Shown: one piece after another, positions 377-55,946 of the stretch
Numbering within the stretch: position 1 is the first letter of the stretch
Layout of the letters: each line of letters starts with the position of its first letter
Assembly (NCBI RefSeq): GCF_021018895.1
Contig: NC_079384.1
Location: 894,640 to 958,639 of the forward strand
Length of the DNA stretch: 64,000 nt
Direction of reading: 5' to 3'
DNA from: Seriola aureovittata
Taxonomy: Eukaryota; Chordata; Actinopteri; Carangiformes; Carangidae
The notes under the pieces: model-generated
The model's database searches: none
What the model was told of the DNA's origin: nothing
Seen by the model: the letters and a program-made list of their open reading frames with translations, nothing else
Program-made: the position numbers and the translations under genes

Positions 377-11113
<10,737 letters not shown>

Positions 11114-11661: not shown

Positions 11662-12250
<589 letters not shown>

Positions 12251-12932: not shown

Positions 12933-13168
12933 TTAAAGCTCCATACTTTCTTCTTCTTCTGTGTTTTATTTGAAGTGTTGATCCACCAGAAGATATAAAA
13001 CCATCTCAGTGTAGTTTTACATCTCCTCTCTCAGGCTTCTCTCTGCAGCTCTAGTAACAACAGGTCTGTGAGCCAATCAGAAGAGAGGAGGCTCTGAGCC
13101 TCTCTTCTGATTGGCTCACTGTTTTCTGACTGATCCAATAAAAATATAGCAGATTTCAGGTAAAAACA
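12933..13168 (-). mobile_element. MITE-like element copy B, truncated
   Basis: Reverse-oriented partial copy of the same family, beginning at TTAAAGCTCC (12,933) and losing similarity shortly after the ATTTCAGGTAAAAAC segment. It lies in the region downstream of the mbtd1 stop, so it may be part of the 3'UTR. Its AATAAA at about 13,137 is element-derived. Confidence 0.75.
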
Positions 13169-18514: not shown

Positions 18515-18520
18515 AATAAA
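18515..18520 (+). terminator. mbtd1: Candidate distal poly(A) signal at the satellite edge
   Basis: AATAAA in ACACTGAATAAAAAGGCTT, followed within about 25 bp by CTGTCTAATCATTTTGTTTC, which is U/GU-rich. It is the best-formed signal in the region. The satellite begins only about 70 bp further on, so readthrough would enter the array directly. Confidence 0.4.
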
Positions 18521-18589: not shown

Positions 18590-21500
18590 CACATGCCTTA
18601 CTATACAATGACATTTTAATGTCTTACTATACGTGGACTTTTCATGCCTTATAATACTATGACTTTTGATGCCTTACTACACAATGATGTTTTATGACTT
18701 TTTATGCCTTACCTTACTATGATGTTTTTATGCCTGACTATACTATGTAGTTTTTATGACTTTTTATGCCTCAGTATACTATGATGTTTTTATGCCTTTC
18801 TATACCTATGACTTTTTTGACTTTTTATGTCTGACTATACTTTGACGTTTTTATGACTTTTTATGCCTTACTATATTTTGATGTTTTTTTTACTTTTATG
18901 CCTTACTATGCTATGACATTTTTATGCCTTTCTATAATATGATGTTTTTATGACTTTTTATGCCTTACCTTACTATGATGTTTTTATGCCTGACTATACT
19001 ATGTAGTTTTTATGTCTTTTTATGCCTCAGTATACAATGATGTTTTTATGCCTTTCTATACCTATGACTTTTTTGACTTTTTATGTCTGACTATACTTTG
19101 ACGTTTTTATGACTTTTTATGGCTTACTATACTATGATTATTTTATGCCTTACTATACTAAGAAGTTTTTATGACTTTTTATGCCTTACTATATTTTGAT
19201 GTTTTTTTTTACTTTTATGCCTTACTATGCTATGATGTTTTTATGCCTTACTATACTAAGAAGTTTTTATGACTTTTTATGCCTTACTATACTATGATTT
19301 TTTATGCCTTACTATACTATGACGTTTTTTTGGCTTATTATACTATGATATTTTTATGACTTTTTATGCCTTACTATACTATGATTTTTTATGCCTTGCT
19401 ATATTAAAAAGTTTTTATGACTTTTTATGCCTTACTATATTTTGATGTTTTTTTTACTTTTATGCCTTACTATACTATGACTTTTTTTTGCCTTATTATA
19501 CTATGAAGTTTTTATGACTTTTTATGCCTTACTATATTTTGATGTTTTTTTTACTTTTATGCCTTACTATACTATGACGTTTTTTTTGCCTTATTATACT
19601 ATGAAGTTTTTATGACTTTTTATGCCTTACTATATTTTGATGTTTTTTTTACTTTTATGCCTTACTATACTATGACGTTTTTTTTTGCCTTATTATACTA
19701 TGAAGTTTTTATGAATTTTTATGTCTTACTATACTATGACGTTTTTTTTTGCCTTACAATACAATGATGTTTTTATGACTTTTTATGCCTTACTATATTA
19801 TGATATTTTTATGACTTACGGTACTATGATTTTTTCTTTACTTTTATGCCTTACTATACTATGATATTTTATGCCTTACTATACTATGACGTTTTTTTGG
19901 CTTATTATACTATGATATTTTTATGACTTTTTATGCCTTACTATACTATGATTTTTTATGCCTTGCTATATTAAAAAGTTTTTATGACTTTTTATGCCTT
20001 ACTATATTTTGATGTTTTTTTTACTTTTATGCCTTACTATACTATGACTTTTTTTTGCCTTATTATACTATGAAGTTTTTATGACTTTTTATGCCTTACT
20101 ATATTTTGATGTTTTTTTTACTTTTATGCCTTACTATACTATGACGTTTTTTTTGCCTTATTATACTATGAAGTTTTTATGACTTTTTATGCCTTACTAT
20201 ATTTTGATGTTTTTTTTACTTTTATGCCTTACTATATTTTGATGTTTTTTTTGCCTTATTATACTATGAAGTTTTTATGAATTTTTATGCCTTACTATAT
20301 TTTGATGTTTTTTTTACTTTTATGCCTTACTATACTATGACGTTTTTTTTGCCTTACTATACTAAGAAGTTTTTATGACTTTTTATGCCTTACTATATTT
20401 TGATGTTTTTTTTACTTTTATGCCTTACTATGCTATGATGTTTTTATGCCTTACTATACTAAGAAGTTTTTATGACTTTTTATGCCTTACTATACTATGA
20501 TTTTTTATGCCTTACTATACTATGACTTTTTTTTGCCTTATTATACTATGATATTTTTATGACTTTTTATGCCTTACTATACTATGATTTTTTTATGCCT
20601 TGCTATATTAAAAAGTTTTTATGACTTTTTATGCCTTACTATATTTTGATGTTTTTTTTACTTTTATGCCTTACTATACTATGACTTTTTTTTGCCTTAT
20701 TATACTATGAAGTTTTTATGACTTTTTATGCCTTACTATATTTTGATGTTTTTTTTACTTTTATGCCTTACTATACTATGACGTTTTTTTTGCCTTATTA
20801 TACTATGAAGTTTTTATGACTTTTTATGCCTTACTATATTTTGATGTTTTTTTTACTTTTATGCCTTACTATACTATGACGTTTTTTTTGCCTTATTATA
20901 CTATGAAGTTTTTATGAATTTTTATGTCTTACTATACTATGACGTTTTTTTTTGCCTTACAATACAATGATGTTTTTATGACTTTTTATGCCTTACTATA
21001 TTATGATATTTTATGACTTACGGTACTATGATTTTTTCTTTACTTTTATGCCTTACTATACTATGATATTTTATGCCTTACTATACTATGACGTTTTTTT
21101 GGCTTATTATACTATGATATTTTTATGACTTTTTATGCCTTACTATACTATGATTTTTTTATGCCTTGCTATATTAAAAAGTTTTTATGACTTTTTATGC
21201 CTTACTATATTTTGATGTTTTTTTTACTTTTATGCCTTACTATACTATGACTTTTTTTTGCCTTATTATACTATGAAGTTTTTATGACTTTTTATGCCTT
21301 ACTATATTTTGATGTTTTTTTTACTTTTATGCCTTACTATACTATGACGTTTTTTTTGCCTTATTATACTATGAAGTTTTTATGACTTTTTATGCCTTAC
21401 TATATTTTGATGTTTTTTTTACTTTTATGCCTTACTATATTTTGATGTTTTTTTTGCCTTATTATACTATGAAGTTTTTATGAATTTTTATGCCTTACTA

Positions 21501-22645
21501 TATTTTGATGTTTTTTTTACTTTTATGCCTTACTATACTATGACGTTTTTTTTGCCTTATTATACTATGAAGTTTTTATGAATTTTTATGCCTTACTATA
21601 TTTTGATGTTTTTTTTACTTTTATGCCTTACTATACTATGACGTTTTTTTTGCCTTATTATACTATGAAGTTTTTATGAATTTTTATGTCTTACTATACT
21701 ATGACGTTTTTTTTGCCTTTATTATACTATGACCTTTTTATGACTTTTTATGTCTTACTATACTATGACGTTTTTTTTTGCCTTACAATACAATGATGTT
21801 TTTATGACTTTTTATGCCTTACTATATTATGATATTTTATGACTTACGGTACTATGATTTTTTCTTTACTTTTATGCCTTACTATATTATGACGTTTTTT
21901 TGCCTTATTATACTATGATATTTTTATGACTTTTTATGCCTTACTATACTATGATTTTTTATGCCTTATTATAGTAACAAGTTTTTATGACTTTTTATGC
22001 CTTACTATATTTTGATGTTTCTTTTTACTTTTATGCCTTACTATGCTATGATGTTTTTATGCCTTACTATACTATGACGTTTTTTTGCCTTATTATACTA
22101 TGATGTTTTTATGACTTTTTATACCTTACTATACTATGAGGTCTTTTTGCCTTATTATAATATGATGTTTTTATGACTTTTTATGCCTTACTATACTATG
22201 ACCTTTTTATGCCTTACTATGTTATAATATTTTATGACTTTTTAGTTCTTATTATACTATGACTTTTTATGCCTAACTATGTTATGATATTTTTATGACT
22301 TTTAATACCTTACTATACTATGACCTTTTTATGCCTTACTATATTAAGAAGTTTTTATGACTTTTTAGGCCTTACTATACTATGACGTTTTAGGCCTTAC
22401 TATACTATGAATTTTTATGCTTCACTATAATATGATGTTTTTATGACTTTTCATGACTTACTATACTATCACTTTTTATGCTTTACTATACTATGACTCT
22501 TTATGCCTTACTATACTAAAACGTTTTTATGACTTTTTGAGGTCTTACTTTACTATGACTTTTTATGCCTTACTGAAATGTGACGTTTTTATGAGTTTGT
22601 GTGATTTACTATACTATGACGTTTTTATGGCTTTTAATACCTTAC
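18590..22645 (+). repeat. Satellite left arm, poly(T)-rich variant subfamily
   Basis: Here the T-rich strand is the + strand (TATGCCTTACTATACTATGA). The units are more divergent and include a private variant with TATATTTTGATG followed by eight T. Three sub-units form a regular composite of about 97-98 bp (for example starts at 19,426, 19,523 and 19,621). Blocks of about 1.2 kb and 0.83 kb are repeated, marked by GACTTACGGTACTATG at 19,813, 21,015 and 21,841. Confidence 0.95.
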
Positions 22646-25600
22646 TATACTATGTATAGTAAGGCATAAAAAGTCATAAAAAGTCATAGTATAGTAAGGC
22701 ATAAAAAGGCATAAAAAGTCATAGTAAAGTAAGACCTCAAAAAGTCATAAAAACGTCTTAGTATAGTAAGGCATAAAAGGTCATAGTATGGTGAGGCTCA
22801 AAATGTCATAAAAACGTCATAGTATAGTAAGGCATAAAAGGTCATAGTATGGTGAGGCTCAAAATGTCATAAAAACGTCATAGTATAGTAAGGCATAAAA
22901 AGTCATAGTATAGTAAGGCCTAAAAAGTCATAAAAAGGTCATTATATGGTAAGGCCTAAAAAGTCATAAAAACGTCATAGTATAGTAAGGCATAAAACGT
23001 AAAAAAGAAAATCATAGTATAGTAAGGCATTAAAAGTCATGAAAACATCATAGTATAGCAAGGCATAAAACGTCATATTATAGTAAGGTGTAAAAAGTCA
23101 TAAAAACGTCATAGTATAGTAAGCCTAAAACGTAAACAAAAGCATCATAGTATAGTAAGGCATTAAAAGTCATGAAAACATCATAATATAGCAAGGCATG
23201 AAAACATCATAGTATAGTAAGGCATAAAAAGTCATAAAAACATCATAGTATAGTGAGGCATAAAAGTCATAGTATAGTAAGGTATAAAAAGTTATAAAAA
23301 CATCATAGTATAGTAAGGTATTAAAAGTCATAAAAACATCATAGTATAGTAAGGCATGAAAATTCATACAAACGTCATAGTATAGCAAGGCATAAAAAGA
23401 CATAGTAAAGTAAGACCTTAAAAAGTCATAAAAACGTCATAGTATAGTAAGGCATAAAAAGTCATAAAAACGTCATAGTATAGTAAGGCATAAAAAGTCA
23501 TAGTATAGTAAGACATAAAAAGTCATAAAAACGTCATAGTATAGTAAGGCATAAAAACGTCATAATATAGTAAGGAATAAAAAATCATAAAAACGTCATA
23601 GTATAGTAAGGCATAAAAAGTCATAAAAACTTCATAGTATAGTGATGCTTAAAAAGTCATAGTATAGTAAGGCATGAAAAGTCATAAAAAAGTCATAGTA
23701 AAGCAAGACATAAAAAGACATAGTAAAGTAAGACCTCAAAAAGTCATAAAAACGTCATAGTATAGTAAGACATAAAAAAGTCATAAAAAAGTCATAAAAA
23801 AGTCATAAAAAAGTCATAAAAAAGTCATAGTATAGTAAGGCATAAAAAGTCATAGTATAGTAAGACATAAAAAAGTCATAAAAACGTCATAGTATAGTGA
23901 GGCTTAAAAAGTCATAGTAAAGTAAGGCATGAAAAGTCATAAAAACGTCATAGTATAGTGAGGCTTAAAAAGTCATAGTATAGTAAGGCATGAAAAGTCA
24001 TAAAAAAGTCATAGTAAAGCAAGACATAAAAAAGTCATAGTAAAGTAAGACCTCAAAAAGTCATAAAAACGTCATAGTATAGTAAGGCATAAAAAGTCAT
24101 AAAAACGTCATAGTATAGTAAGGCATAAAAAGTCATAGTATAGTAAGACATAAAAAGTCATAAAAACGTCATAGTATAGTGAGGCTTAAAAAGTCATAGT
24201 AAAGTAAGGCATGAAAATTCATAAAAACGTCATAGTATAGTAAGGCATGAAAAGTCATAAAAACTTCATAGTATAGTAAGGCATAAAAACGTCATAATAT
24301 AGTAAGGAATAAAAAATCATAAAAACGTCATAGTATAGTAAGGCATAAAAAGTCATAAAAACTTCATAGTATAGTAAGGCATGAAAAGTCATAAAAACGT
24401 CATAGTATAGTGAGGCTTAAAAAGTCATAGTATAGTAAGGCATGAAAAGTCATAAAAAAGTCATAGTAAAGCAAGACATAAAAAGACATAGTAAAGTAAG
24501 ACCTCAAAAATTCATAAAAACGTCATAGTACAGTAAGGCATAAAAAGTCACAGTATAGTAAGGTATAAAAAGTTATAAAAACATCATAGTATAATGAGGC
24601 CTAAAACGTCATAAAAACGTCATAGTATAGTAAGGCATGAAAAGTCATAAAAAAGTCATAGTATAGCAAGGCATAAAAACACATAGTAACGTAAGACCTT
24701 AAAAAGTCATAAAAGCGTCATAGTATAGTAAGGCATAAAAACGTCATAATATAATAAGGCCTAAAAAGTCATAAAAACGTCATAGTATAGTGAGGCATAA
24801 AAAGTCATAAAATCGTCATAGTATAGGAAGGCATGAAAAGTCATAAAAAAGTCATAGTATAGCAAGGCATAAAAAGACATAGTAAAGTTAGACCTTAAAA
24901 AGTCATAAAAACCTCATAGTATAGTAAGACATGAAAAGTCATAAAAAAGTCATATTATAGTAAGGCCTAAAACGTCATAGTACAGTAAGGCATAAAAAGT
25001 CATAACAACGTCATAGTATAGTAAGGCATAAAAAGTCATAAAAACGTCATAGTATAGTAAGGCATGAAAAGTCATAAAAACCTCATAGTATAGTGAGGCT
25101 TAAAAAGTGATAGTATAGTAAGACATAAAAAGTCATAAAAACGTCATAGTATAGTAAGGCATGAAAAGTCATAAAAAAGTCATAGTATAGCAAGACATAA
25201 AAAGACATAGTAAAGCAAGACCTTAAAAAGTCATAAAAACGTCATAGTATAGTAAGGCATAAAAAGTCATAAAATCGTCATAGTATAGTAAGGCATGAAA
25301 AGTCATAAAAAAGTCATAGTATAGCAAGGCATAAAAAGACATAGTAAAGTAAGACCTTAAAAAGTCATAAAAACGTCATAGTATAGAAAGGCTTAAAAAG
25401 TCATAAAAACGTCATAGTATATTAAGGCATAAAAAGTCATAGTATAGTAAGGTATTAAAAGTCATAAAAACATCATAACATAGTAAGGCCTAAAACGTCA
25501 TAAAAACGTCATAGGATAGTAAGGCATGAAAAGTCATAAAAAAGTCATAGTATAGCATGGCATTAAAACGTCATAATATAGTAAGGCATGAAAAGTCATA

Positions 25601-28600
25601 AAAAAGTCATAATATAGTAAGGCCAAAAACGTCATAGTACAGTAAGGCATAAAAAGTCATAAAAACGTCATAGTATAGTAAGGCATGAAAATTGATAAAA
25701 ACGTCATAGTATGGTAAGGAATAAAACGTAAAAAAGAAAATCATAGTATAGTAAGGCATTAAAAGTCATGAAAACATCATAGTATAGCAAGGCATAAAAC
25801 GTCATATTATAGTAAGGTGTAAAAAGTCATAAAAACGTCATAGTATAGTAAGCCTAAAACGTAAACAAAAGCATCATAGTATAGTAAGGCATTAAAAGTC
25901 ATGAAAACATCATAATATAGCAAGGCATGAAAACATCATAGTATAGTAAGGCATAAAAAGTCATAAAAACATCATAGTATAGTGAGGCATAAAAGTCATA
26001 GTATAGTAAGGTATAAAAAGTTATAAAAACATCATAGTATAGTAAGGTATTAAAAGTCATAAAAACATCATAGTATAGTAAGGCATGAAAATTCATACAA
26101 ACGTCATAGTATAGCAAGGCATAAAAAGACATAGTAAAGTAAGACCTTAAAAAGTCATAAAAACGTCATAGTATAGTAAGGCATAAAAAGTCATAAAAAC
26201 GTCATAGTATAGTAAGGCATAAAAAGTCATAGTATAGTAAGACATAAAAAAGTCATAAAAACGTCATAGTATAGTAAGGCATAAAAACGTCATAATATAG
26301 TAAGGCATAAAAAGTCATAAAAAAGTCATAAAAACGTCATAGTATAGTAAGGCATAAAAAGTCATAAAAACTTCATAGTATAGTGATGCTTAAAAAGTCA
26401 TAGTATAGTAAGGCATGAAAATTCATACAAACGTCATAGTAAAGCAAGACATAAAAAGACATAGTAAAGTAAGACCTCAAAAAGTCATAAAAACGTCATA
26501 GTATAGTAAGGCATAAAAAGTCATAAAAACGTCATAGTATAGTAAGGCATAAAAAGTCATAGTATAGTAAGGCATAAAAAGTCATAAAAACGTCATAGTA
26601 TAGTAAGGCATAAAAAGTCATAGTATAGTAAGACATAAAAAGTCATAAAAACGTCATAGTATAGTGAGGCTTAAAAAGTCATAGTAAAGTAAGGCATGAA
26701 AAGTCATAAAAACGTCATAGTATAGTGAGGCTTAAAAAGTCATAGTATAGTAAGGCATGAAAAGTCATAAAAAAGTCATAGTAAAGCAAGACATAAAAAG
26801 ACATAGTAAAGTAAGACCTCAAAAAGTCATAAAAACGTCATAGTATAGTAAGGCATAAAAAGTCATAAAAACGTCATAGTATAGTAAGGCATAAAAAGTC
26901 ATAGTATAGTAAGACATAAAAAGTCATAAAAACGTCATAGTATAGTGAGGCTTAAAAAGTCATAGTAAAGTAAGGCATGAAAATTCATAAAAACGTCATA
27001 GTATAGTAAGGCATGAAAAGTCATAAAAACTTCATAGTATAGTAAGGCATAAAAAGTCATACAAACGTCATAGTATAGTAAGGCATGAAAATTCATAAAA
27101 ACGTCATAGTATAGTAAGGCATAAAAACGTCATAATATAGTAAGGAATAAAAAATCATAAAAACGTCATAGTATAGTAAGGCATAAAAAGTCATAAAAAC
27201 TTCATAGTATAGTAAGGCATGAAAAGTCATAAAAACGTCATAGTATAGTGAGGCTTAAAAAGTCATAGTATAGTAAGGCATGAAAAGTCATAAAAAAGTC
27301 ATAAAAAAGTCATAGTAAAGCAAGACATAAAAAGACATAGTAAAGTAAGACCTCAAAAATTCATAAAAACGTCATAGTACAGTAAGGCATAAAAAGTCAC
27401 AGTATAATGAGGCCTAAAACGTCATAAAAAAGTCATAAAAAAGTCATAGTATAGTAAGGCATGAAAAGTCATAAAAAAGTCATAAAAGCGTCATAGTATA
27501 GCAAGGCATAAAAACACATAGTAACGTAAGACCTTAAAAAGTCATAAAAGCGTCATAGTATAGTAAGGCATAAAAACGTCATAATATAATAAGGCCTAAA
27601 AAGTCATAAAAACGTCATAGTATAGTGAGGCATAAAAAGTCATAAAATCGTCATAGTATAGGAAGGCATGAAAAGTCATAAAAAAGTCATAGTATAGCAA
27701 GGCATAAAAAGACATAGTAAAGTTAGACCTTAAAAAGTCATAAAAACCTCATAGTATAGTAAGACATGAAAAGTCATAAAAAAGTCATATTATAGTAAGG
27801 CCTAAAACGTCATAGTACAGTAAGGCATAAAAAGTCATAACAACGTCATAGTATAGTAAGGCATAAAAAGTCATAAAAACGTCATAGTATAGTAAGGCAT
27901 GAAAAGTCATAAAAACCTCATAGTATAGTGAGGCTTAAAAAGTGATAGTATAGTAAGACATAAAAAGTCATAAAAACGTCATAGTATAGTAAGGCATGAA
28001 AAGTCATAAAAAAGTCATAGTATAGCAAGACATAAAAAGACATAGTAAAGTAAGACCTTAAAAAGTCATAAAAACGTCATAGTATAGAAAGGCTTAAAAA
28101 GTCATAAAAACGTCATAGTATATTAAGGCATAAAAAGTCATAGTATAGTAAGGTATTAAAAGTCATAAAAACATCATAACATAGTAAGGCCTAAAACGTC
28201 ATAAAAACGTCATAGGATAGTAAGGCATGAAAAGTCATAAAAAAGTCATAGTATAGCATGGCATTAAAACGTCATAATATAGTAAGGCATGAAAAGTCAT
28301 AAAAAAGTCATAATATAGTAAGGACAAAAACGTCATAGTACAGTAAGGCATAAAAAGTCATAAAAACGTCATAGTATAGTAAGGCATGAAAATTGATAAA
28401 AACATCATAGTATAGTAAGGCATAAAAACGTCATAGTATGGTAAGGAATAAAAAATCATAAAAATGTCATAGTATAGTAAGGCATGAAAAGTCATAAAAA
28501 AGTCATAGTATAGTGAGTCATAAAAACGTCATAGTATAGTAAGGAATAAAAAATCATAAAAACGTCATATTATAGTAAAGCATAAAAAGTCACAAAAACG

Positions 28601-31600
28601 TCATAGTATAGTAAGGCATGAAAAGTCATAAAAAAGTCATAGTATAGTAAGGCATAAAAAGTCATAAAAACGTCATAGTATAGTAAGGCATGAAAATTCA
28701 TTAAAACGTCATAGTATAGTAAGGAATAAAAAATCATAAAAACGTCATAGTATAGTAAGGCCTAAAAAGTCATAAAAATGTCATAGTATAGTGAGGCTTA
28801 AAAAGTCATAGTATAGTAAGGCATGAAAAGTCATAAAAACGTCATAGTATAGTAAGGCATAAAAAGTCATAAAAACGTCATAGTATAGTAAGACATGAAA
28901 ATTCATAAAAACGTCATAGTATAGCAAGGCATAAAAAGACATAGTAAAGTAAGACCTTAAAAAGTCATAAAAACGTCATAGTATAGCAAGGCATAAAAAC
29001 GTCATAAAAAAGTCATAGTATAGTAAGGCCTAAAAAGTCATAAAAACGTCATAGTATAGTAAGGCTTAAAAAGTCATGAAAACGTCATAGTATATTAAGG
29101 CATAAAAAGTCATAGTATAGTAAGGTATTAAAAGTCATAAAAACATCATAATATAGTAAGGCCTAAAACGTCATAAAAACGTCATAGTATAGTAAGGCAT
29201 GAAAAGTCATAAAAAAGTCATAGTATAGCATGGCATAAAAAGACATAGTAAAATAAGACCTTAAAAAGTCATAAAAACGTCATAGTATAGCAAGGCACAA
29301 AAAGGCATAAAAACGTCATCATATAGTAAGGCCTAAAAAGTCATAAAAACGTCATAGTATTGTGAGGCTTAAAAAGTCATAAAAACGTCATGGTATAGTA
29401 AGGAATGAAAAGTCATAAAAAAGTCATAGTATAGCAAGGCATAAAAAGACATAGTAAAGTAAGATCTTAAAAAGTCATAAAAACGTCATAATATAGTAAA
29501 GCATAAAACGTCATAATATAGTAAGGCATAAAAAGTCATAAAAACGTCATAGTATAGTGAGGCTTAAAAAGTCATAGTACAGTAAGGCATAAAAAGTCAT
29601 AAAAACGTCATAGTATAGTAAGGCATGAAAATTCATAAAAACGTCATAGTATAGTAAGGCATAAAAACGTCATAGTATAGTAAGGAATAAATAATCATAA
29701 AAACGTCATAGTATAGTAAAGCATAAAAAGTCACAAAAACGTCATAGTATAGTAAGGCATGAAAAGTCATAAAAAAGTCATAGTATAGTAAGGCATAAAA
29801 AGTCATAAAAACGTCATAGTATAGTAAGGCATGAAAAGTCATAAAAAAGTCATAGTATAGTAAGGCATAAAAACGTCATAGTATAGCAAGGCATAAAAAG
29901 ACATAGTAAAGTAAGACCTTAAAAAGTCATAAAAACGTCATAGTATAGCAAGGCATAAAAAGTCATAAAAACGTCATAGTATAGTAAGGCATAAAAAGTC
30001 ATAGTATAGTAAGACATAAAAAGTCATAAAAACGTCATAGTATAGTGAGGCTTAAAAAGTCATAGTATAGTAAGGCATGAAAAGTCATAAAAAAGTCATA
30101 ATATAGTAAGGGTTAAAAACGTCATAGCACAGTAAGGCATAAAAAGTCATAAAAACGTCATAGTATAGTAAGGCATGAAAATTCATTAAAACTTCATAGT
30201 ATAGTAAGGAATAAAAAATCATAAAAACGTCATAGTATAGTAAGGCCTAAAAAGTCATAAAAATGTCATAGTATAGTGAGGCTTAAAAAGTCATAGTATA
30301 GTAAGGCATGAAAAGTCATAAAAACGTCATAGTATAGTAAGGCATAAAAAGTCACAAAAACGTCATAGTATAGTAAGGCATGAAAAGTCATAAAAACGTC
30401 ATAGTATAGTGAGGCTTAAAAAGTCATAGTATAGTAAGGCATGAAAAGTCATAAAAAAGTCATATTATAGTAAGGCCTAAAACGTCATAGTACAGTAAGG
30501 CATAAAAAGTCATAACAACGTCATAGTGTAGTAAGGCTTAAAAAGTCATAAAAACGTCATAGTATAGTAAGGCATAAAAAGTCATAAAAACGTCACAGTA
30601 TAGTAAGGAATGAAAAGTCATAAAAACGTCATAGTATAGTGAGGTTTAAAAAGTCATAGTATAGTAAGGCATGAAAAGTCATAAAAACTTCATAGTATAG
30701 TAAGGCATAAAAAGTCATACAAACGTCATAGTATAATAAGGCATGAAAATTCATAAAAACGTCATAGTATAGTAAGGCATAAAAACGTCATAATATAGTA
30801 AGGAATAAAAAATCATAAAAATGTCATAGTATAGTAAGGCATAAAAAGTCATAAAAACTTCATAGTATAGTAAGGCATGAAAAGTCATAGTATAGTAAGG
30901 CATGAAAAGTCATAAAAACGTCATAGTACAGTAAGGCATAAAAACTCACAGTATAGTAAGGTATAAAAAGTTATAAAAACATCATAGTATAATGAGGCCT
31001 AAAACGTCATAAAAACGTCATAGTATAGTAAGGCATGAAAAGTCATAAAAAAGTCATAGTATAGCAAGGCATAAAAACACATAGTAACGTAAGACCTTAA
31101 AAAGTCATAAAAGCGTCATAGTATAGTAAGGCATAAAAACGTCATAATATAATAAGGCCTAAAAAGTCCTAAAAACGTCATAGTATAGTGAGGCATAAAA
31201 AGTCATAAAATCGTCATAGTATAGTAAGGCATGAAAAGTCATAAAAAAGTCATAGTATAGCAAGGCATAAAAAGACATAGTAAAGTTGGACCTTAAAAAG
31301 TCATAAAAACCTCATAGTATAGTAAGACATGAAAAGTCATAAAAAAGTCATATTATAGTAAGGCCTAAAACGTCATAGTACAGTAAGGCATAAAAAGTCA
31401 TAACAACGTCATAGTATAGTAAGGCATAAAAAGTCATAAAAACGTCATAGTATAGTAAGGCATGAAAAGTCATAAAAACCTCATAGTATAGTAAGGCTTA
31501 AAAAGTCATAGTATAGTAAGACATAAAAAGTCATAAAAACGTCATAGTATAGTAAGGCATGAAAAGTCATAAAAAAGTCATAGTATAGCAAGATATAAAA

Positions 31601-34600
31601 AGACATAGTAAAGCAAGACCTTAAAAAGTCATAAAAACGTCATAGTATAGTAAGGCATAAAAAGTCATAAAATCGTCATAGTATAGTAAGGCATGAAAGT
31701 CATAAAAAAGTCATAGTATAGCAAGGCATAAAAAGACATAGTAAAGTAAGACCTTAAAAAGTCATAAAAACGTCATAGTATAGTAAGGCTTAAAAAGTCA
31801 TGAAAACGTCATAGTATATTAAGGCATAAAAAGTCATAGTATAGTAAGGTATTAAAAGTCATAAAAACATCATAATATAGTGAGGCCTAAAACGTCATAA
31901 AAACGTCATAGGATAGTAAGGCATAAAAAGTCATAAAAACGTCATAGTATAGCAAGGCATAAAAAGACATAGTAAAGTAAGACCTTAAAAAGTCATAAAA
32001 ACGTCATAGTATAGCAAGGCATAAAAAGTCATAAAAACGTCATAGTATAGTAAGGCATAAAAAGTCATAGTATAGTAAGACATAAAAAGTCATAAAAACG
32101 TCATAGTATAGTGAGGCTTAAAAAGTCATAATATAGTAAGGCATGAAAAGTCATAAAAAAGTCATAATATAGTAAGGCTTAAAAACGTCATAGCACAGTA
32201 AGGCATAAAAAGTCATAAAAACGTCATAGTATAGTAAGGCATGAAAATTCATTAAAACGTCATAGTATAGTAAGGAATAAAAAATCATAAAAACGTCATA
32301 GTATAGTAAGGCCTAAAAAGTCATAAAAATGTCATAGTATAGTGAGGCTTAAAAAGTCATAGTATAGTAAGGCATGAAAAGTCATAAAAACGTCATAGTA
32401 TAGTAAGGCATAAAAAGTCATAAAAACGTCATAGTATAGTAAGACATGAAAATTCATAAAAACGTCATAGTATAGCAAGGCATAAAAAGACATAGTAAAG
32501 TAAGACCTTAAAAAGTCATAAAAACGTCATAGTATAGCAAGGCATAAAAACGTCATAAAAACGTCATAGTATAGTGAGGTTTAAAACGTTATAGTACAGT
32601 AAGGCATAAAAAGTCATAAAAACGTCATAGTATAGTAAGGCATAAAAAGTCATAAAAACGTCATAGTATAGTAAGGCATAAAAACGTCGTAGTATAGTGA
32701 GGCTTAAAAAGTCATAGTATAGTAAGGCATGAAAAGTCATAAAAAAGTCATAGTAAAGTAAGACCTTAAAAAGTCATAAAAACGTCATAGTATAGTAAGA
32801 CATGAAAATTCATAAAAACGTCATAGTATAGCAAGGCATAAAAAGACATAGTAAAGTAAGACCTTAAAAAGTCATAAAAACGTCATAGTATAGAAAGACA
32901 TAAAAAGTCATAAAAACGTCATAGTATAGTAAGGCATGAAAAGTCAAAAAAACGTCATAATATAGTAAAGCATAAAAAGTCATAAAAACGTCATAATATA
33001 GTAAGGCATAAAAAGTCATAAAAACGTCATAGTATAGTGAGGCTAAAAAAGTCATAGTACAGTAAGGCATAAAAAGTCATAAAAACGTCATAGTATAGTA
33101 AGGCATGAAAATTCATAAAAACGTCATAGTATAGTAAGGCATAAAAAGTCATAAAAACGTAATAGTATAGTAAGGAATAAAAAATCATAAAAACGTCATA
33201 GTATAGTAAGGCATAAAAACGTCATAGTATAGTAAGGAATAAAAAATCATAAAAACGTCATAGTATAGTAAAGCATAAAAAGTCACAAAAACGTCATAGT
33301 ATAGTAAGGCATGAAAAGTCATAAAAAAGTCATAGTATAGTAAGGCATAAAAAGTCATAAAAACGTCATAGTATAGTAAGGCATGAAAAGTCATAAAAAA
33401 GTCATAGTATAGTAAGGCATGAAAACGTCATAGTATAGCAAGGCATAAAAAGACATAGTAAAGTAAGACCTTAAAAAGTCATAAAAACGTCATAGTATAG
33501 CAAGGCATAAAAAGTCATAAAAACGTCATAGTATAGTAAGGCATAAAAAGTCATAGTATAGTAAGACATAAAAAGTCATAAAAACGTCATAGTATAGTGA
33601 GGCTTAAAAAGTCATAGTATAGTAAGGCATGAAAAGTCATAAAAAAGTCATAATATAGTAAGGCTTAAAAACGTCATAGCACAGTAAGGCATAAAAAGTC
33701 ATAAAAACGTCATAGTATAGTAAGGCATGAAAATTCATTAAAACGTCATAGTATAGTAAGGCATAAAAAGTCCTAAAAACGTCATAGTATAGTAAGGCAT
33801 GAAAAGTCATAAAAACGTCATAGTATAGTGAGGCTTAAAAAGTAATAGTATAGTAAGGCATGAAAAGTCATAAAAAAGTCATATTATAGTAAGGCCTAAA
33901 ACGTCATAGTACAGTAAGGCATAAAAAGTCATAAAAACGTCATAGTATAGTGAGGCTTAAAAAGTCATAGTATAGTAAGGCATGAAAAGTCATAAAAACG
34001 TCATAGTATAGTAAGGCATAAAAAGTCATAAAAACGTCATAGTATAGTGAGGCTTAAAACGTCATAGTACAGTAAGGCATAAAAAGTCATAACAACGTCA
34101 TAGTATAGTAAGGCATAAAAAGTCATAAAAACGTCATAGTATAGTAAGGCATAAAAAGTCATAAAAACGTCATAGTATAGTAAGGAATGAAAAGTCATAA
34201 AAACGTCATAGTATAGTGAGGCTTAAAAAGTCATAGTATAGTAAGGCATGAAAAGTCATAAAAACGTCATAGTATAGTAAGGCATGAAAAGTCAAAAAAA
34301 CGTCATAATATAGTAAAGCCTAAAAAGTCATAAAAACGTCATAATATAGTAAGGCATAAAAAGTCATAAAAACGTCATAGTATAGTGAGGCTTAAAAAGT
34401 CATAGTACAGTAAGGCATAAAAAGTCATAAAAACGTCATAGTATAGTAAGGCATGAAAATTCATAAAAACGTCATAGTATAGTAAGGCATAAAAAGTCAT
34501 AAAAACGTCATAGTATAGTAAGGCATGAAAAGTCATAAAAAAGTCATAGTATAGTAAGGCATAAAAAGTCATAAAAACGTCATAGTATAGTAAGGCATGA

Positions 34601-37600
34601 AAAGTCATAGTATAGTAAGGCATAAAAACGTCATAGTATAGTAAGGCATAAAAACGTAATAGTATAGTAAGGAATAAAAAATCATAAAAACGTCATAGTA
34701 TAGTAAGGCATAAAAACGTCATAGTATAGTAAGGAATAAAAAATCATAAAAACGTCATAGTATAGTAAAGCATAAAAAGTCACAAAAACGTCATAGTATA
34801 GTAAGGCATGAAAAGTCATAAAAAAGTCATAGTATAGTAAGGCATGAAAAGTCATAAAAACGTCATAGTATAGTAAGGCATAAAAAGTCACAAAAACGTC
34901 ATAGTATAGTAAGGCATAAAAAGTCACAAAAACGTCATAGTATAGTAAGGCATAAAAAGTCATAAAAACGTCATAGTATAGTAAGGCATGAAAAGTCATA
35001 AAAAAGTCATAGTATAGTAAGGAATAAAAAATCATAAAAAGGTCATAGTATAGTAAGGCATAAAAAGTCACAAAAACGTCATAGTATAGTAAGGCATGAA
35101 AAGTCATAAAAAAGTCATAGTATAGTAAGGAATAAAAAATCATAAAAACGTCATAGTATAGTAAGGCATAAAAAGTCACAAAAACGTCATAGTATAGTAA
35201 GGCATAAAAAGTCATAAAAACGTCATAGTATAGTAAGGCATGAAAAGTCATAAAAAAGTCATAGTATAGTAAGGCATGAAAACGTCATAGTATAGCAAGG
35301 CATAAAAAGACATAGTAAAGTAAGACCTTAAAAAGTCATAAAAACGTCATAGTATAGCATGGAATAAAAAGTCATAAAAACGTCATAGTATAGTAAGGCA
35401 TAAAAAGTCATAGTATAGTAAGGAATGAAAAGTCATAAAAACGTCATAGTATAGTGAGGCTTAAAAAGTCATAGTATAGTAAGGCATGAAAAGTCATAAA
35501 AAAGTCATAGTAAAGTAAGACCTTAAAAAGTCATAAAAACGTCATAGTATAGTAAGACATGAAAATTCATAAAAACGTCATAGTATAGCAAGGCATAAAA
35601 AGACATAAAAACGTCATAGTATAGCAAGACATAAAAAGACATAGTAAAGTAAGACCTTAAAAAGTCATAAAAACGTCATAGTATAGCAAGGCATAAAAAG
35701 TCATAAAAACGTCATAGTATAGCAAGACATAAAAAGACATAGTAAAGTAAGACCTTAAAAAGTCATAAAAACGTCATAGTATAGTAAGGCATGAAAAGTG
35801 ATAAAAACGTCAGAGTATAGTAAGGCATAAAAAGTCATAAAATCGTCATTGTATAGTAAGGCATAAAAAGACACAGTATAGTAAGGTATAAAAAGTTATA
35901 AAAACATCATAGTATAGTAAGGTATTAAAAGTCATAAAAACATCATAGTATAATAAGGCCTAAAACGTCATAAAAACTTCATAGTATAGTAAGGCATGAA
36001 AAGTCATAAAAAAGTCATAGTATAGCAAGGCATAAAAAGACATAGTAAAGTAAGACCTTAAAAAGTCATAAAAACGTCATAGTATAGCAAGGCATAAAAA
36101 GTCATAAAAACGTCATAGTATTGTAAGGCATAAAAACGTCATAATATAGTAAGGCCTAAAAAGTCATAAAAACGTCATAGTATAGTGAGGCTTAAAAAGT
36201 CATAGTATAGTAAGGCATAAAAAGTCATAAAAAAGTCATAGTATAGTAAGGCATAAAAAGTCATAAAAACGTCATAGTATAGCAAGACATAAAAAGACAT
36301 AGTAAAGTAAGACCTTAAAAAGTCATAAAAACGTCATAGTATAGAGAGACATAAAAAGTCATAAAAACGTCATAGTATAGTAAGGCATGAAAAGTCATAA
36401 AAAAGTCATAGTATAGCAAGGCATAAAAACACATAGTAAAGTAAGACCTTAAAAAGTCATAAAAATGTCATAGTATAGTAAGGCATAAAAAGTCATAAAA
36501 ACGTCATACTATAGTAAGACATAAAAAGTCATAAAAACGTCATAGTATAGTAAGGCATGAAAAGTCATAAAAAAGTCATAGTATAGCAAGACATAAAAGA
36601 CATAGTAAAGTAAGACCTTAAAAAGTCATAAAAACGTCATAGTATAGTAAGGCATAAAAAGTCATAAAATCGTCATAGTATAGTAAGGCATAAAAAGACA
36701 CAGTATAGTAAGGTATAAAAAGTTATAAAAACATCATAGTATAGTAAGGCATAAAAAGTCATAAAAAAGTCATAGTATAGTAAGGCATAAAAAAGTCATA
36801 AAAAAGTCATAAAAAAGTCATAGTAAAGCAAGACATAAAAAGACATAGTAAAGTAAGACCTTAAAAAGTCATAAAAACGTCATAGTATAGAGAGACATAA
36901 AAAAGTCATAAAAACGTCATAGTATAGTAAGGCATGAAAAGTCATAAAAAAGTCATAGTATAGCAAGGCATAAAAACACATAGTAAAGTAAGACCTTAAA
37001 AAGTCATAAAAATGTCATAGTATAGTAAGGCATAAAAAGTCATAAAAACGTCATACTATAGTAAGACATAAAAAGTCATAAAAACGTCATAGTATAGTAA
37101 GCATGAAAAGTCATAAAAAAGTCATAGTATAGCAAGACATAAAAGACATAGTAAAGTAAGACCTTAAAAAGTCATAAAAACGTCATAGTATAGTAAGGCA
37201 TAAAAAGTCATAAAATCGTCATAGTATAGTAAGGCATAAAAAGACACAGTATAGTAAGGTATAAAAAGTTATAAAAACATCATAGTATAGTAAGGTATTA
37301 AAAGTCATAAAAACATCATAGTATAATAAGGCCTAAAACGTCATAAAAACTTCATAGTATAGTAAGGCATGAAAAGTCATAAAAAAGTCATAGTATAGCA
37401 AGGCATAAAAAGACATAGTAAAGTAAGACCTTAAAAAGTCCTAAAAACGTCATAGTATAGTAAGGCATAAAAAGTCAGTATAGTAAGGTATTAAAAGTCA
37501 TAAAAACATCATAGTATAGTGAGGCTTAAAAAGTCATAGTATAGTAAGGCATGAAAAGTCATAAAAAAGTCATATTATAGTAAGGCCTAAAACGTCATAG

Positions 37601-40600
37601 TACAGTAAGGAACAAAAAGTCATAACAACGTCATAGTGTAGTAAGGCTTAAAAAGTCATAAAAACGTCATAGTATAGTAAGGCATAAAAAGTCATAAAAA
37701 CGTCATAGTATAGTAAGGCATGAAAAGTCATAAAAACGTCATAGTATAGTAAGGCATAAAAACGTCATAAAAACGTCATAGTATAGTAAGGCATGAAAAG
37801 TCATAAAAACGTCATAGTATAGTGAGGCTTAAAACGTCATAGTACAGTAAGGCATAAAAAGTTATAACAACGTCATAGTATAGTAAGGCATAAAAAGTCA
37901 TAAAAACGTCATAGTATAGTAAGGCATGAAAAGTCATAAAAAAGTCATAGTATAGCAAGACATAAAAAGACATAGTAAAGTAAGACCTTAAAAAGTCATA
38001 AAAACGTCATAGTATAGTAAGGCATAAAAACGTCATAGTATAGTAAGGCCTAAAAAGTCATAAAAACGTCATAGTATAGTAAGGCATGAAAAGTCATAAA
38101 AAAGTCATAGTATAGCAAGGCATAAAAAGACATAGTAAAGTAAGACCTTAAAAAGTCATAAAAACGTCATAGTATAGTAAGGCATAAAAAGTCATAAAAA
38201 CGTCATAGTATAGTAAGGCATGAAAAGTGAGAAAAACGTCATAGTACAGTAAGGCATAAAAAGTCATAAAAACGTCATAGTATAGTAAGGCATAAAAAGT
38301 CATAAAATCGTCATAGTATAGTAAGGTATGAAAAGTCATAAAAAAGTCATAGTATAGCAAGGCATAAAAAGACATAGTAAAGTAAGACCTTAAAAAGTCA
38401 TAAAAATGTCATAGCATAGTAAGGCATAAAAAGTCAGTACAGTAAGGTATTAAAAGTCATAAAAACATCATAGTATAGTAAGGCATAAAAACGTCATAAA
38501 AAAGTCATAGTATAGCAAGGCATAAAAAGACATAGTAAAGGAAGACCTTAAAAAGTCATAACAACGTCATAGTATAGTAAGGCATAAAAAGTCATAATAT
38601 AGTAAGGCCCAAAAAGTCATAAAAACGTCATAGTATAGTGAGGCTTAAAAAGTCATAGTGTAGTAAGGCATGAAAAGTCATAAAAAAGTCATAGTATAGC
38701 AAGGCATAAAAAGCCATAGTACAGTAAGACCTTAAAAAGTCATAAAAACGTCATAGTATAGTAAGACATGAAAAGTCATAAAAAAGTCATATTATAGTAA
38801 GGCCTAAAACGTCATAGTACAGTAAGGCATAAAAAGTCATAACAACGTCATAGTATAGTAAGGCATGGAAAGTCATAAAAAAGTCATAGTATAGCAAGGC
38901 ATAAAAAGACATAGTAAAGTAAGACCTTAAAAAGTCATAAAAACGTCATAGTATAGTAAGGCATGAAAAGTCATAAAAACGTCATAGTATAGTAAGGCAT
39001 GAAAAGTCATAAAAACGTCATAGTATAGTGAGGCTTAAAAAGTCATAGTATAGTAAGGCATGAAAAGTCATAAAAAAGTCATAGTAAAGCAAGACATAAA
39101 AAGACATAGTATAGTAAGACCTTAAAAAGTCATAAAAACGTCATAGTATAGTAAGACATGAAAATTCATAAAAACGTCATAGTATAGCAAGGCATAAAAA
39201 GACATAGTAAAGTAAGACCTTAAAAAGTCATAAAAATGTCATAGTATAGTAAGGCATAAAAAGTCATAAAAACGTCATAGTATAGTAAGACATAAAAAGT
39301 CATAAAAACGTCATAGTATAGTAAGGCATGAAAAGTCATAAAAAAGTCATAGTATAGTAAGGCATAAAAAGTCATAAAATCGTCATAGTATAGTATGGCA
39401 TAAAAAGACACAGTATAGTAAGGTATAAAAAGTTATAAAAACATCATAGTATAGTAAGGTATTAAAAGTCATAAAAACATCATAGTATAACAAGGCCTAA
39501 AACGTCATAAAAACTTCATAGTATAGTAAGGCATGAAAAGTCATAAAAAAGTCATAGTATAGCAAGGCATAAAAAGACATAGTAAAGTAAGACCTTAAAA
39601 AGTCATAAAAACGTCATAGAATAGCAAGGCATAAAAAGTCATAAAAACGTCATAGTATAGTGAGGCTTAAAAAGTCATAGTATAGTAAGGCATAAAAAGT
39701 CATAAAAACGTCATAGTACAGTAAGGCATAAAAAGTCATAAAAACGTCATAGTATAGTGAGGCTTAAAAACGTCATAATATAGTAAGGCCTAAAAAGTCA
39801 TAAAAACGTCATAGTATAGTGAGGCTTAAAAAGTCATAAAAACGTCATAGTATAGTGAGGCTTAAAAACGTCATAATATAGTAAGGCCTAAAAAGTCATA
39901 AAAACGTCATAGTACAGTAAGGCATAAAAAGTCATAAAAACGTCATAGTATAGTAAGGAATGAAAAGTCATAAAAACGTCATAGTATAGTGAGGCTTAAA
40001 AAGTCATAGTATAGTAAGGCATGAAAAGTCATAAAAACGTCATAGTATAGTAAGGCATGAAAAGTCATAAAAACGTCATAGCTTAAAAAGTCATAGTATA
40101 GTAAGGTATGAAAAGTCATAAAAACGTCATAGTATAGTAAGGCATGAAAAGTCATAAAAACGTCATAGTATAGTAAGGCATGAAAAGTCATAAAAAAGTC
40201 ATATTATAGGAAGGCCTAAAACGTCATAGTATAGTAAGGCATAAAAAGTCATAAAAACGTCATAGTATAGTAAGGCATGAAAAGTCATAAAAACGTCACA
40301 GTATAGTGAGGCTTAAAAAGACACAGTATAGTAAGGCCTAAAACGTCATAAAAACTTCATAGTATAGTAAGGCATGAAAAGTCATAAAAAAGTCATAGTA
40401 TAGCAAGGCATAAAAAGACATAGTAAAGTAAGACCTTAAAAAGCCATAAAAACGTCATAGTACAGTGAGGCTTAAAAAGTCATAGTATAGTAAGGCATGA
40501 AAAGTCATAAAAAAGTCATAGTATAGTGAGGCTTAAAAAGTCATAGTATAGTAAGGCATGAAAAGTCATAAAAAAGTCATAATATAGTAAGGCTTAAAAA

Positions 40601-40949
40601 CGTCATAGCACAGTAAGGCATAAAAAGTCATAAAAACGTCATAGTATAGTAAGGAATAAAAAATCATAAAAACGTCATAGTATAGTAAGGCCTAAAAAGT
40701 CATAAAAACGTCATAGTATAGTGAGGCTTAAAAAGTCATAGTATAGTAAGGCATGAAAAATCATAAAAACGTCATAGTATAGTAAGGCATGAAAAGTCAT
40801 AAAAACGTCATAGTATAGTAAGGCATGAAAAGTCATAAAAACGTCATAGTATAGTAAGGCATGAAAAGTCATAAAAACGTCATAGTATAGTAAGGCATAA
40901 AAAGCCATAAAAAGGTCATAGTATAGTAAGGCATAAAAAGCCATAAAAA
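22646..40949 (-). repeat. Satellite central arm, inverted, about 18.3 kb
   Basis: Here the A-rich strand is the + strand. Units follow the 36-nt consensus more closely than in the left arm. Marker variants reveal segment duplications: an identical 77-codon open stretch at 23,170-23,403 and 25,899-26,132 (offset 2,729 bp); CATAGTAACGTAAGACC at 24,682, 27,517 and 31,080; and ATAGAGAGAC blocks at 36,341 and 36,887 (offset 546 bp). Confidence 0.95.
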
Positions 40950-40954
40950 CATCT

Positions 40955-41436
40955 AAGAAGTTTTTATGACTTTTTATGCCTTACTACATTTAGATGTTTT
41001 TTTTTACTTTTATACCTTACTATACCATTACGTTTTATGACTTTTTATGCCTTATTATACTATGATGTTTTTATGACTTTTTATGCCTTAATATACTATG
41101 ACCTTTTTATGACTTTTTATGCCTTACTATACTTTGACATTTTTTTTACTTTTATGGCTTACTATACAATGTCGTTTTATGTCCTACGGTACTATGATGT
41201 TTTTCTGACTTTTCATGCCTTACTACAATATGACGTTTTTGTGAGTTTGTGTGATTTACTATACTGACATTTTTATGACTTTTTATGCCTTACCATTCTA
41301 AGAAGTTTTTATGACTTTTTATGCCTTACTATACTATGACTTTGTATGCCTATAAAACATATTGATATTTTTGTGACTTTTATGTCTTACTATACTTTGA
41401 CGTTTTTATGACTTTTTATGTCTTACTATGCTATGC
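40955..41436 (+). repeat. Satellite right arm, short return to original orientation
   Basis: About 480 bp of units again in the T-rich orientation, with variants like those of the far-left arm (TTTTTTTTTACTTTTAT, CCTACGGTACTATG). This suggests that the left and right arms were once continuous. The array then ends at CTATGCTATGCTAACAATAA. Confidence 0.93.
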
Positions 41437-42869: not shown

Positions 42870-42875
42870 TTTATT
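42870..42875 (-). terminator. nme2: nme poly(A) signal
   Basis: TTTATT on this strand is AATAAA on the gene strand, within CTTTCCAATAAAATGCACAC. It sits about 315 bp past the stop codon, a normal short 3'UTR for this family. Cleavage would fall near 42,845-42,855. Confidence 0.6.
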
Positions 42876-43188: not shown

Positions 43189-43380
43189 TCAGTAGAGCCA
43201 GCTGAAGGCACAGCTCGTGTAGCTGACCAGCTCCTCTTGTTTGAACCACAGGGAAATCTCCTTGTTGGCACTCTCCACTGAGTCACTGCCATGGATGATG
43301 TTCCTGTGGAGACAAACAGGAACAATGACAACAAGACCCACATTCAGTCTGAACTAACAAGTGGTAGTGTCTGCCTGCTG

Positions 43381-43419
<39 letters not shown>

Positions 43420-45220
43420 GGACTCACTTGCTAACGTCGATGCAGAAGTCTCCTCTGATGGTTCCAGGCTTGGACTCGGCAGGGTTGGTCTCGCCCAGCA
43501 TCACCCTGCCCGTCTTCACTGCACCCTTGCCTTCCCAAACCTGAGGACACAAGTGGGACAAGATGAAGACAGCACCTTCCCAGCAGCCTTTGCTGACAAA
43601 CTGTAGGCACTCATTTGCACAAGAGCCAATCAAGCAGAGCACGTTCCAGGCTTCATAACTCATCTCCAGGGTTTCATTTGGATTCAACAGCGCAGGTTCA
43701 TACAATCTGTCATGTGTCGTCTCTTACCATGGCAACCACTGGACCGGAGGTCATGTAGTTGATGAGGGTAGGGAAGAACGGTCTGTCCTTCAGGTCGATG
43801 TAGTGCTGCATGAGGAGGTCCTCAGAGGCCTGCAGCAGGGAGACAACACGTCAGTGTCATACACTTTGAGATCTGAATGATCTACGGCACCAGATGAGTC
43901 TGCGTCTGTCTTCACACATTATAACACTTTCCTAGATGCTGCTTTTACCTCGGCTGTAAACTGGGAAACTACTGCTGGACTCATGTCTCCACTGAATCAA
44001 GTCAACCTTGTTAAAGTATGAATCCATAACAACTTGCAGCCAAGTCAGTTCTTATTAACTGCAACATGATGGATTAAAGCTGCAGGTTGACAGTGACTTT
44101 ACAAGAGCCACAAGAAGCTGGAAAGACTACAACGATAGTCGCATTAAGAGCTGTGTATGTTCAGTGAGAGACATCCTCAGTTAAATGTTTGTTTGCCTTT
44201 GTTCACCTGAGCCTAAGGATGCACCAATCAGATCAGTGTGCAGCACAGATACTGATCTTATTAAGCAGATTGGACATCAGCCAGATGGACAGGGGGACAC
44301 ACACTCTTTGACCAAAGAAAAGAACAATGCCGTCAGTTCAGTTCTCAGCAGCTTCCCTGGTGTTTTTCCTCAACAAGCCCCTCCCTCATCCTCAGCTCCA
44401 CGTCCTGTTCACACGACAACCTCCCAACACAACCCACTCCAATGTTAAGACTCAAGTCACACGCTGAACAGCCAGAAATCCTGTAAGCAGATACCGACCC
44501 ATCGAACCTGAATCAGCACAACAATTCAGCTTTCTAAACAGAAGACTTAAAAACAATGTTTTTTTTGTCGTTTTAAAATCAGCAGAATGAATGCTTGAAA
44601 ATACGACATTCATCTGTACAGTCTAAATCTCTCCCACTTCCTGTGGACTCAGCTGATTCAGACACTTCCTGCTGCATCACCGACACCTGCAGTTCACGGG
44701 TGGGTCAATCTTCTCTTCAGTAAAAACAAAGGGGCTTTTTTTGCATCAAGATCCAGAAGATCATTTACACATAAATTCTTGCATAATGAAGGTTTATAAA
44801 TGAGCCACACGATCGTGGTGTTAAGTTAGGCAGCGTCTCTGTCACAGATCAGATGTTAGGGGGATCAGGAGACCTGGATCTTCGGTGCTGCTGATTGGTC
44901 GTGCCAACGGTCAGGAATAGACAAAGCAGGCTAATCAGCTCACCGGAGGTCTTAACTGTCACTCTGCACACTCAGAAGATCATCTACATAAACTGCAGCA
45001 GTAAAAATAAACACCGGCGACCATTATGAAAGCAGCTCATTTCAAACCCTGTGGCTAACGTGACATTAATATAAATCAACCGTTTACTCACATGGAGCAT
45101 CTTCAGGCCGACCAGTTTGAAGCCTTTGACCTCAAACCTCTTGATGATCTCTCCGATGATGCCCCTCTGCACGCCATCGGGCTTGATGGCAATGAAAGTG
45201 CGTTCCTTCATCTCGGCCAT
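43189..45220 (-). CDS. nme2: Nucleoside diphosphate kinase (NME1/NME2 class)
   Basis: Transfers the terminal phosphate from ATP to nucleoside diphosphates through a phospho-histidine. Family members are cytosolic and nuclear hexamers, and NME2 is also known as a transcriptional co-factor and histidine kinase. Coding exons on the minus strand are 45220-45092, 43829-43728, 43540-43428 and 43303-43189 (129, 102, 113, 115 nt), all with GT-AG borders. They give 152 residues, the family length. Seen residues: Lys13, Tyr53, Arg89, Thr95, Arg106, Asn116 and catalytic His119 in NIIHGSDS (each one above human numbering because of one extra N-terminal residue). The protein starts [16 protein letters not shown] and ends SWLY. 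The ATG at 45220 is the family start and has G at -3 and +4. Intron 3 holds a short (TG)n. Assignment to nme2 rather than nme1 rests on the tail-to-tail neighbour mbtd1. Confidence 0.94.
43386..43414. repeat. (TG)n microsatellite in nme intron 3
   Basis: A short (TG)n tract near the 5' splice site of the 124-bp intron between the third and fourth nme coding exons. Intronic CA/TG tracts can modulate splicing. Confidence 0.9.
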
Positions 45221-45306
45221 GACTCTGAAAACACAACAGAACAAACAAATGAAGAGACGTTAACCAAGTGAAACCAGCAGGAGGAGAAAAGCCCAGAGTC
45301 ACTCAC

Positions 45307-55438: not shown

Positions 55439-55448
55439 ACACACACAC

Positions 55449-55485
<37 letters not shown>

Positions 55486-55597
55486 CACACACACACACAC
55501 ACAACACAACACACACACACACACACAACACACACACACACACACAACACAACACAACACACACACACACACACAACACACACACACACACGCACAC

Positions 55598-55634
<37 letters not shown>

Positions 55635-55659
55635 CACAACACAACACACACACACAACA

Positions 55660-55704
<45 letters not shown>

Positions 55705-55899: not shown

Positions 55900-55946
<47 letters not shown>

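What the first reader, a model, noticed from the sequence alone, without database searches (positions are those of the whole stretch)
18590..41436. 22.8-kb satellite block inserted between two convergent, syntenic genes
The mbtd1 and nme genes keep their ancestral tail-to-tail order, yet their 3' ends are separated by a single-family tandem array that makes up more than a third of the window. Satellites of this size usually sit in heterochromatin. One between two housekeeping genes in a gene-dense interval is unusual and may act as a chromatin boundary, a transcription terminator zone or a fragile site.
Basis: partly seen in the sequence, partly recalled or inferred. Interest (0 to 1): 0.8.

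Follow-up and report, generated by a model that had tools for sequence, protein, structure and literature searches.

The report
Flipped minisatellite block between two genes
A 22.8-kb run of short repeated DNA lies between the tail ends of two genes; it is one of many such runs scattered over this genome, and its middle part is turned around and looks like a separately evolving run, so it is a neat example of a known kind of repeat and not a one-off structure.

Summary
The array is real: 18,592-41,435 (22,844 bp), one family of about 25- and 36-bp units, roughly 677 unit anchors, no N. mbtd1 (+) and an nme gene (-) face it tail to tail. Two corrections. First, it is not uniform: 4.1 kb forward, 18.3 kb reversed, 0.5 kb forward. 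Turning the middle back restores unit phase at both junctions (joint P 0.002); the right shoulder's closest relative is the left shoulder, not the middle beside it. Second, it is not a one-off: the listed rows give 60 clusters on 18 of 24 chromosome-sized contigs, 58 of 60 in one half of their chromosome. Gene tails facing arrays (7 of 8 recognised neighbours, one by eye, two being the window's own) are suggestive only; poly(A)-type signals at edges show no clear bias (8 of 14 towards, 6 of 14 away). Closest precedent seen: minisatellite expansion in recombining chromosome ends of frogs (PMC10794172, passages). Boundary, terminator and fragile-site roles are untested. Ordinary in kind; useful as a test of how orientation limits homogenisation.

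The parts
18592..22654 (+). left shoulder of the array, T-rich sense (CCTTACTATACTATGAC...), with private T-run variants and a 1203-bp higher repeat in its core
22655..40952 (-). reversed middle block, 18.3 kb, A-rich on the + strand (AAGGCATAAAAAGTCATAGTATAGT units)
40953..41435 (+). right shoulder of the array, T-rich sense, 483 bp
22640..22664 (.). junction 1: perfect 11-bp inverted repeat with 3-base loop at the orientation switch 22,654/22,655
   Evidence: sequence; phase test
40937..40970 (.). junction 2: orientation switch at 40,952/40,953
   Evidence: sequence; phase test
1881..11113 (+). mbtd1: FCS zinc finger (1881-2063) and MBT repeats (3555-8070); last exon and stop codon 11,111-11,113 assigned by eye
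   Evidence: Pfam, PDB; last exon has no Pfam match
18515..18520 (+). AATAAA, 77 bp before the left edge of the array; whether mbtd1 uses it is not shown
43189..45259 (-). nme (nucleoside diphosphate kinase) exons seen, stop codon 43,191-43,189; 3' end towards the array
   Evidence: Pfam, PDB
42870..42875 (-). AATAAA on the nme strand, about 1.4 kb from the right edge of the array

Best explanation
This is one locus of a dispersed AT-rich minisatellite-type family (25- and 36-bp units) that forms arrays between genes. Shown: place, unit structure, presence of the family on 18 chromosome-sized contigs, confinement of the listed clusters to one half of most chromosomes, higher identity within than between arrays, and a reversed middle block whose two ends fall back into unit phase when turned round. 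Inferred: arrays grow by unequal exchange or gene conversion and persist where they interrupt nothing, such as past gene 3' ends. Here an interior piece of an older forward array was inverted; since inverted neighbours are not homogenised by ordinary unequal exchange, that piece then turned over separately and grew (its size when it flipped is unknown), leaving the old array as two divergent shoulders. No host function is needed.
For: Re-inverted junctions: 2 and 0 mismatches of 32 to units elsewhere in the array; random joins do as well in 5.9% and 1.6% of 3,000, both together 0.23% of 3,000; joining the shoulders without the middle gives 7 mismatches. Right shoulder is closest to the left shoulder of 19 blocks (0.864; next 0.855), middle block 18th of 19. 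Identity within blocks 0.97 and 0.99, left against middle 0.87-0.90. All 19 blocks compared are more alike inside than to any other. Identical duplicated segments up to 561 bp; in the C14:23.28 array an identical 320-bp interruption occurs twice. 60 clusters, 58 in the majority half; null mean 42.3, maximum 53 of 200,000 simulations.
Against: Subfamily data do not by themselves demand inversion: the right end of the middle block, which would have adjoined the left shoulder, ranks the left shoulder last of 18, so extensive later turnover must be assumed. The R-to-L ranking rests on 483 bp and a margin of 0.009, untested for significance. Of the three arrays with switches, the forward block of C3:25.9 has its own reversed block as best match (0.936), against full independence. 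Cluster counts come from capped lists and clusters may be local copies of one another. Recombination rates were not measured.
Confidence: 0.6

Rival explanations
1. The middle block is a foreign array of the same family inserted backwards into an older local array (for example from extrachromosomal circular repeats), not an inverted piece of it.
For: The middle block is no closer to the left shoulder than arrays on other chromosomes are; for the left core it ranks 18 of 18, and its right end ranks the left shoulder 18 of 18.
Against: Unit phase restored at both junctions on turning round (joint P 0.0023) is not expected of a backward insertion; removing the block does not give a clean unit (7 mismatches).
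Confidence: 0.2
2. The orientation switches are assembly errors that join separate arrays.
For: Arrays of one family on many chromosomes invite wrong joins; the middle side of junction 2 shows no edge decay.
Against: No N; phase restored at both junctions; the first ~400 bp of the middle block at junction 1 decay as an array edge does (0.87, 0.91, 0.96, 0.97, then 1.0 in 100-bp steps); 3 of 16 loci read show switches.
Confidence: 0.15
3. The array is a functional element between the genes: chromatin boundary or transcription-termination zone.
For: It lies past convergent 3' ends here and at C7:5.7 Mb; 7 of 8 recognised neighbours present the 3' end. In the middle block the mbtd1 strand holds 19 AATAAA and 21 ATTAAA, the other strand none.
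Against: Poly(A)-type signals within 150 bp of 14 edges point towards the array at 8 and away at 6, no clear bias. The strand asymmetry follows from the A-rich unit. Survival only where harmless explains the placement.
Confidence: 0.04

Closest known systems
Minisatellite expansions in frog chromosome ends (Xenopus tropicalis, PMC10794172; passages seen)
   Same: Short-unit tandem arrays at many places, biased along chromosomes; expansion by unequal exchange proposed there
   Different: Frog arrays lie in terminal ~20-30 Mb with measured recombination and at least one derives from a SINE tail; here no recombination map, no source element found, and the unit is very AT-rich
Human subtelomeric VNTRs (PMC7608644; passages seen)
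   Same: Repeat units above 15 bp, excess towards chromosome ends
   Different: The human excess is for GC above 60%; here GC is about 23-30% and arrays are 16-23 kb where read to both ends
Euchromatic satellite DNA such as Drosophila 1.688 and Tribolium TCAST1 (review PMC5615363; passages seen)
   Same: One family in many places near genes, homogenised locally
   Different: Those families also have heterochromatic blocks and are often short in euchromatin; here large interstitial arrays, heterochromatic blocks not looked for
Inverted blocks inside human centromeric alpha-satellite arrays (recalled, no call)
   Same: A tandem array with a reversed internal block
   Different: Here a small array between genes

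Membership tests
Minisatellite / large VNTR | Tandem units of about 10-100 bp | tested here: met
   Main spacings 36 and 25 bp
Minisatellite / large VNTR | Length differs between individuals | not testable with these tools
   One genome held
Dispersed euchromatic satellite | One family as arrays at many interstitial, gene-flanked places | tested here: met
   60 clusters on 18 contigs from listed rows; genes recognised in 8 of 15 flanks read
Dispersed euchromatic satellite | Local homogenisation | tested here: met
   Within-block identity above best other block in 19 of 19 blocks
Centromeric / heterochromatic satellite | Large blocks at one site per chromosome | tested here: not met
   Several interstitial arrays per chromosome, up to 9 listed on C3
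Centromeric / heterochromatic satellite | H3K9me3 and dense methylation | tested here: inconclusive
   Only an indirect trace: CpG o/e 0.91 middle, 0.47 left, flanks 0.50 and 0.41; CG-site TG+CA 728 to CG 2136, control GG transitions 136 to 2657
Fold-back or other transposon with internal repeats | Shared terminal sequences at all copies | tested here: not met
   15 flanks of 9 loci share only short matches of 31-98 bp between loci; edges differ
Fold-back or other transposon with internal repeats | Opposite orientation of the two ends | tested here: not met
   Both ends of the window array are forward; same-way ends also in the other switching array read to both ends, C3:25.9

The most novel reading that the evidence does not exclude
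This family lodges past gene 3' ends, in spacers between convergent genes on one half of each chromosome, and orientation flips split arrays into blocks that stop exchanging sequence. It would then be a genome-wide natural experiment on which spacers tolerate 20 kb of repeats and on how orientation controls concerted evolution.
Probability: 0.2. Interest if true: 0.55.

Novelty: new member of a known kind. Interest (0 to 1): 0.35.

Why it matters
If right, large repeat arrays can be routine tenants of gene spacers in a compact vertebrate genome, and one family in at least 60 places, some with flipped blocks, gives a clean way to measure how inversion limits homogenisation between neighbouring copies. 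It also warns against reading function into one striking array.

Tried and rejected
Transposon or fold-back element: flanks share no common ends. Middle block as a clean insertion: phase not restored on removal. Poly(A)-type signals at array edges: 8 of 14 edges towards and 6 of 14 away within 150 bp, 10 and 8 within 400 bp (one search had misplaced two edges, C16:25.36 left and C3:29.99 right). Chromosome polarity from a TTAGGG-bearing satellite: on C1 and C3 it lies at the end opposite to the arrays (13 clusters), on C4 and C11 in the same half (3 clusters); C12, C20 and C23 have no listed cluster (for C1 alone, which lists the first 100 or so of 1843 matches). Unit in viral contigs: none. 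The 16-letter core TATAGTAAGGCATAAA in the 5.39 million papers held: none. Rfam on the window at gathering score: none. A-tract spacing: strongest periods about 12.2, 8.9 and 33 bp, not 10.5.

Neighbours counted: window mbtd1 and nme; C7:5.7 guanylate cyclase (left) and DEK_C gene (right); C21:0.67 left neutral ceramidase; C18:24.98 right WD40 gene (hPrp4 among the PDB matches, not the top one); C16:25.36 right an RS-rich ORF with no Pfam match, orientation by eye, its opposite strand also being open; these seven present the 3' end. Against: C5:23.7 left creatine-kinase-like, 5' side, at least 4 kb off. P 0.035; 0.0625 without the RS-rich ORF. Not counted: six flanks with no recognised gene (C3:29.99 L, C3:25.9 L and R, C21:1.44 R, C5:23.7 R, C16:25.36 L) and C3:29.99 R, only 1.4 kb seen.

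Full report
Observation. TRF gives overlapping arrays from 18,592 to 41,435, 22,844 bp or 35.7% of the window, without N. In its A-rich sense the unit is AAGGCATAAAAAGTCATAGTATAGT (25 bp), or the same with an 11-bp TAAAAACGTCA insert (36 bp). Unit anchors, matched with up to 3 substitutions, number 128, 537 and 12 in the left, middle and right blocks; main spacings are 36 and 25 bp. AT skew changes sign near 22.7 and 41 kb, and oriented k-mers give three blocks, refined by reading the sequence: forward 18,592-22,654, reversed 22,655-40,952, forward 40,953-41,435.

Neighbours. On + Pfam finds an FCS zinc finger and MBT repeats, and the best PDB sequence match is MBT domain-containing protein 1. 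On - three exons hit the NDK domain. Both genes point at the array. An AATAAA begins 77 bp before the left edge; one on the nme strand lies about 1.4 kb from the right edge. The mbtd1 stop codon, assigned by eye, is 7.4 kb before the array, so that this AATAAA is the used one is not shown. Human gene order is recalled, not tested.

The flip. With the middle block turned round, the two junctions match units elsewhere in the array with 2 and 0 mismatches of 32; random joins do as well in 5.9% and 1.6% of 3,000 trials, and both together in 0.23% of 3,000. Removing the middle and joining the shoulders gives 7 mismatches, typical of random joins. Junction 1 is a perfect 11-bp inverted repeat with a 3-base loop. 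The first 400 bp or so of the middle block at junction 1 are decayed (0.87, 0.91, 0.96, 0.97, then 1.0 in 100-bp steps), as at an array edge; its right end is not.

Separate evolution. Best-match identity is 0.97 and 0.99 within the left and middle blocks and 0.87-0.90 between them, no better than to the median other array (0.87 and 0.93). The right shoulder's best match among 19 blocks is the left shoulder (0.864; next 0.855), with the middle block 18th; this rests on 483 bp and was not tested for significance. Against the left core the middle ranks 18 of 18, against the left edge 11 of 18, and against the 0.75 kb next to junction 1 first by 0.001. The right end of the middle block, which simple inversion would place beside the left shoulder, ranks that shoulder 18 of 18, so inversion needs much later turnover. 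In the other two switching arrays, the blocks of C21:0.67 are about as alike as unrelated arrays, while the forward block of C3:25.9 is closest to its own reversed block (0.936). I read this as inversion followed by separate turnover, with backward insertion as the main rival.

Genome-wide. A 401-bp piece of the array has 231 scored matches (not all listed) and an exact 90-bp pattern 104 (51 and 53 by strand; the backwards control none), of which 100 are listed. The listed rows form 60 clusters on 18 of the 24 chromosome-sized contigs. Of 15 chromosomes with two or more clusters, 13 have them all in one half; C13 has 3 and 1, C14 1 and 1. In total 58 of 60 lie in the majority half, against a null mean of 42.3 and a maximum of 53 in 200,000 simulations. 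Clusters may be local copies of each other. Distance to the nearest end is shorter than uniform (KS P 0.005). Whether the favoured half is the one away from the centromere is not settled.

Other arrays. Of 16 loci read in part or whole, 13 run one way in the part seen and 3 (window, C21:0.67, C3:25.9) switch. Fifteen flanks of nine loci share no common ends, only matches of 31-98 bp. The C7 array (5.6966-5.7126 Mb) lies between a guanylate cyclase gene (+) and a DEK_C gene (-), again convergent. One-sided: neutral ceramidase (+) left of C21:0.67, a WD40 gene (-) right of C18:24.98 and an RS-rich ORF right of C16:25.36 (orientation by eye) present 3' ends; a creatine-kinase-like gene left of C5:23.7 presents its 5' side. 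That is 7 of 8, P 0.035; 6 of 7 without the by-eye case, P 0.0625; 5 of 6 without the window's own pair, P 0.11. Seven further flanks gave no gene. Poly(A)-type signals within 150 bp of 14 edges point towards the array at 8 and away at 6. Suggestive only; selection against arrays in promoters and introns would suffice.

Methylation trace. CpG o/e is 0.91 in the middle, 0.47 in the left shoulder, 0.59 in the right, 0.50 and 0.41 in the flanks. At the unit's CG site TG and CA number 728 to 2136 intact over the arrays read; the control GG shows 136 transitions to 2657 intact. Some germline methylation is likely; this is no chromatin measurement.

Comparison. Frog chromosome ends carry satellite and minisatellite expansions that go with high recombination (PMC10794172, passages); human GC-rich VNTRs are 21-fold enriched within 5 Mb of chromosome ends (PMC7608644, passages); euchromatic satellites with local homogenisation are reviewed in PMC5615363 (passages). 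The family fits this kind, with an AT-rich unit. Four topic searches, seen as listings only, showed no title on arrays of convergent-gene spacers; this is no proof of absence from print.

Verdict. A new member of a known kind, made more interesting by its flipped core.

Noticed in passing
window 4464-4940, 12933-13168, 51765-52081, 57418-57912: Copies of one short dispersed repeat, 95-97% identical, in both flanks and both orientations, with a short internal palindrome; probably a non-autonomous transposon (the shared ORF is).
   Followed up: no
window 11666-12246 and 55439-56064: Two long AC dinucleotide runs of about 0.6 kb on either side of the array, one just after the mbtd1 stop codon.
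   Followed up: no
L060 (C3:115050-115960): A satellite of about 0.86-0.91 kb bearing TTAGGG runs at one end of C3, C4, C11, C12, C20 and C23 among the matches listed; possibly centromeric or subtelomeric.
   Followed up: partly
L026 1340-1660 and 2670-3010 (C14:23.28 Mb): An identical 320-bp non-unit interruption present twice in one array, a sign of duplication of a larger segment.
   Followed up: no
window 18592-41435: Units carry GTCATAAAA- and GGCATAAAA-type words (353 and 270 in the array) that resemble posterior Hox/Cdx binding sites as I recall them; no binding test was possible.
   Followed up: no
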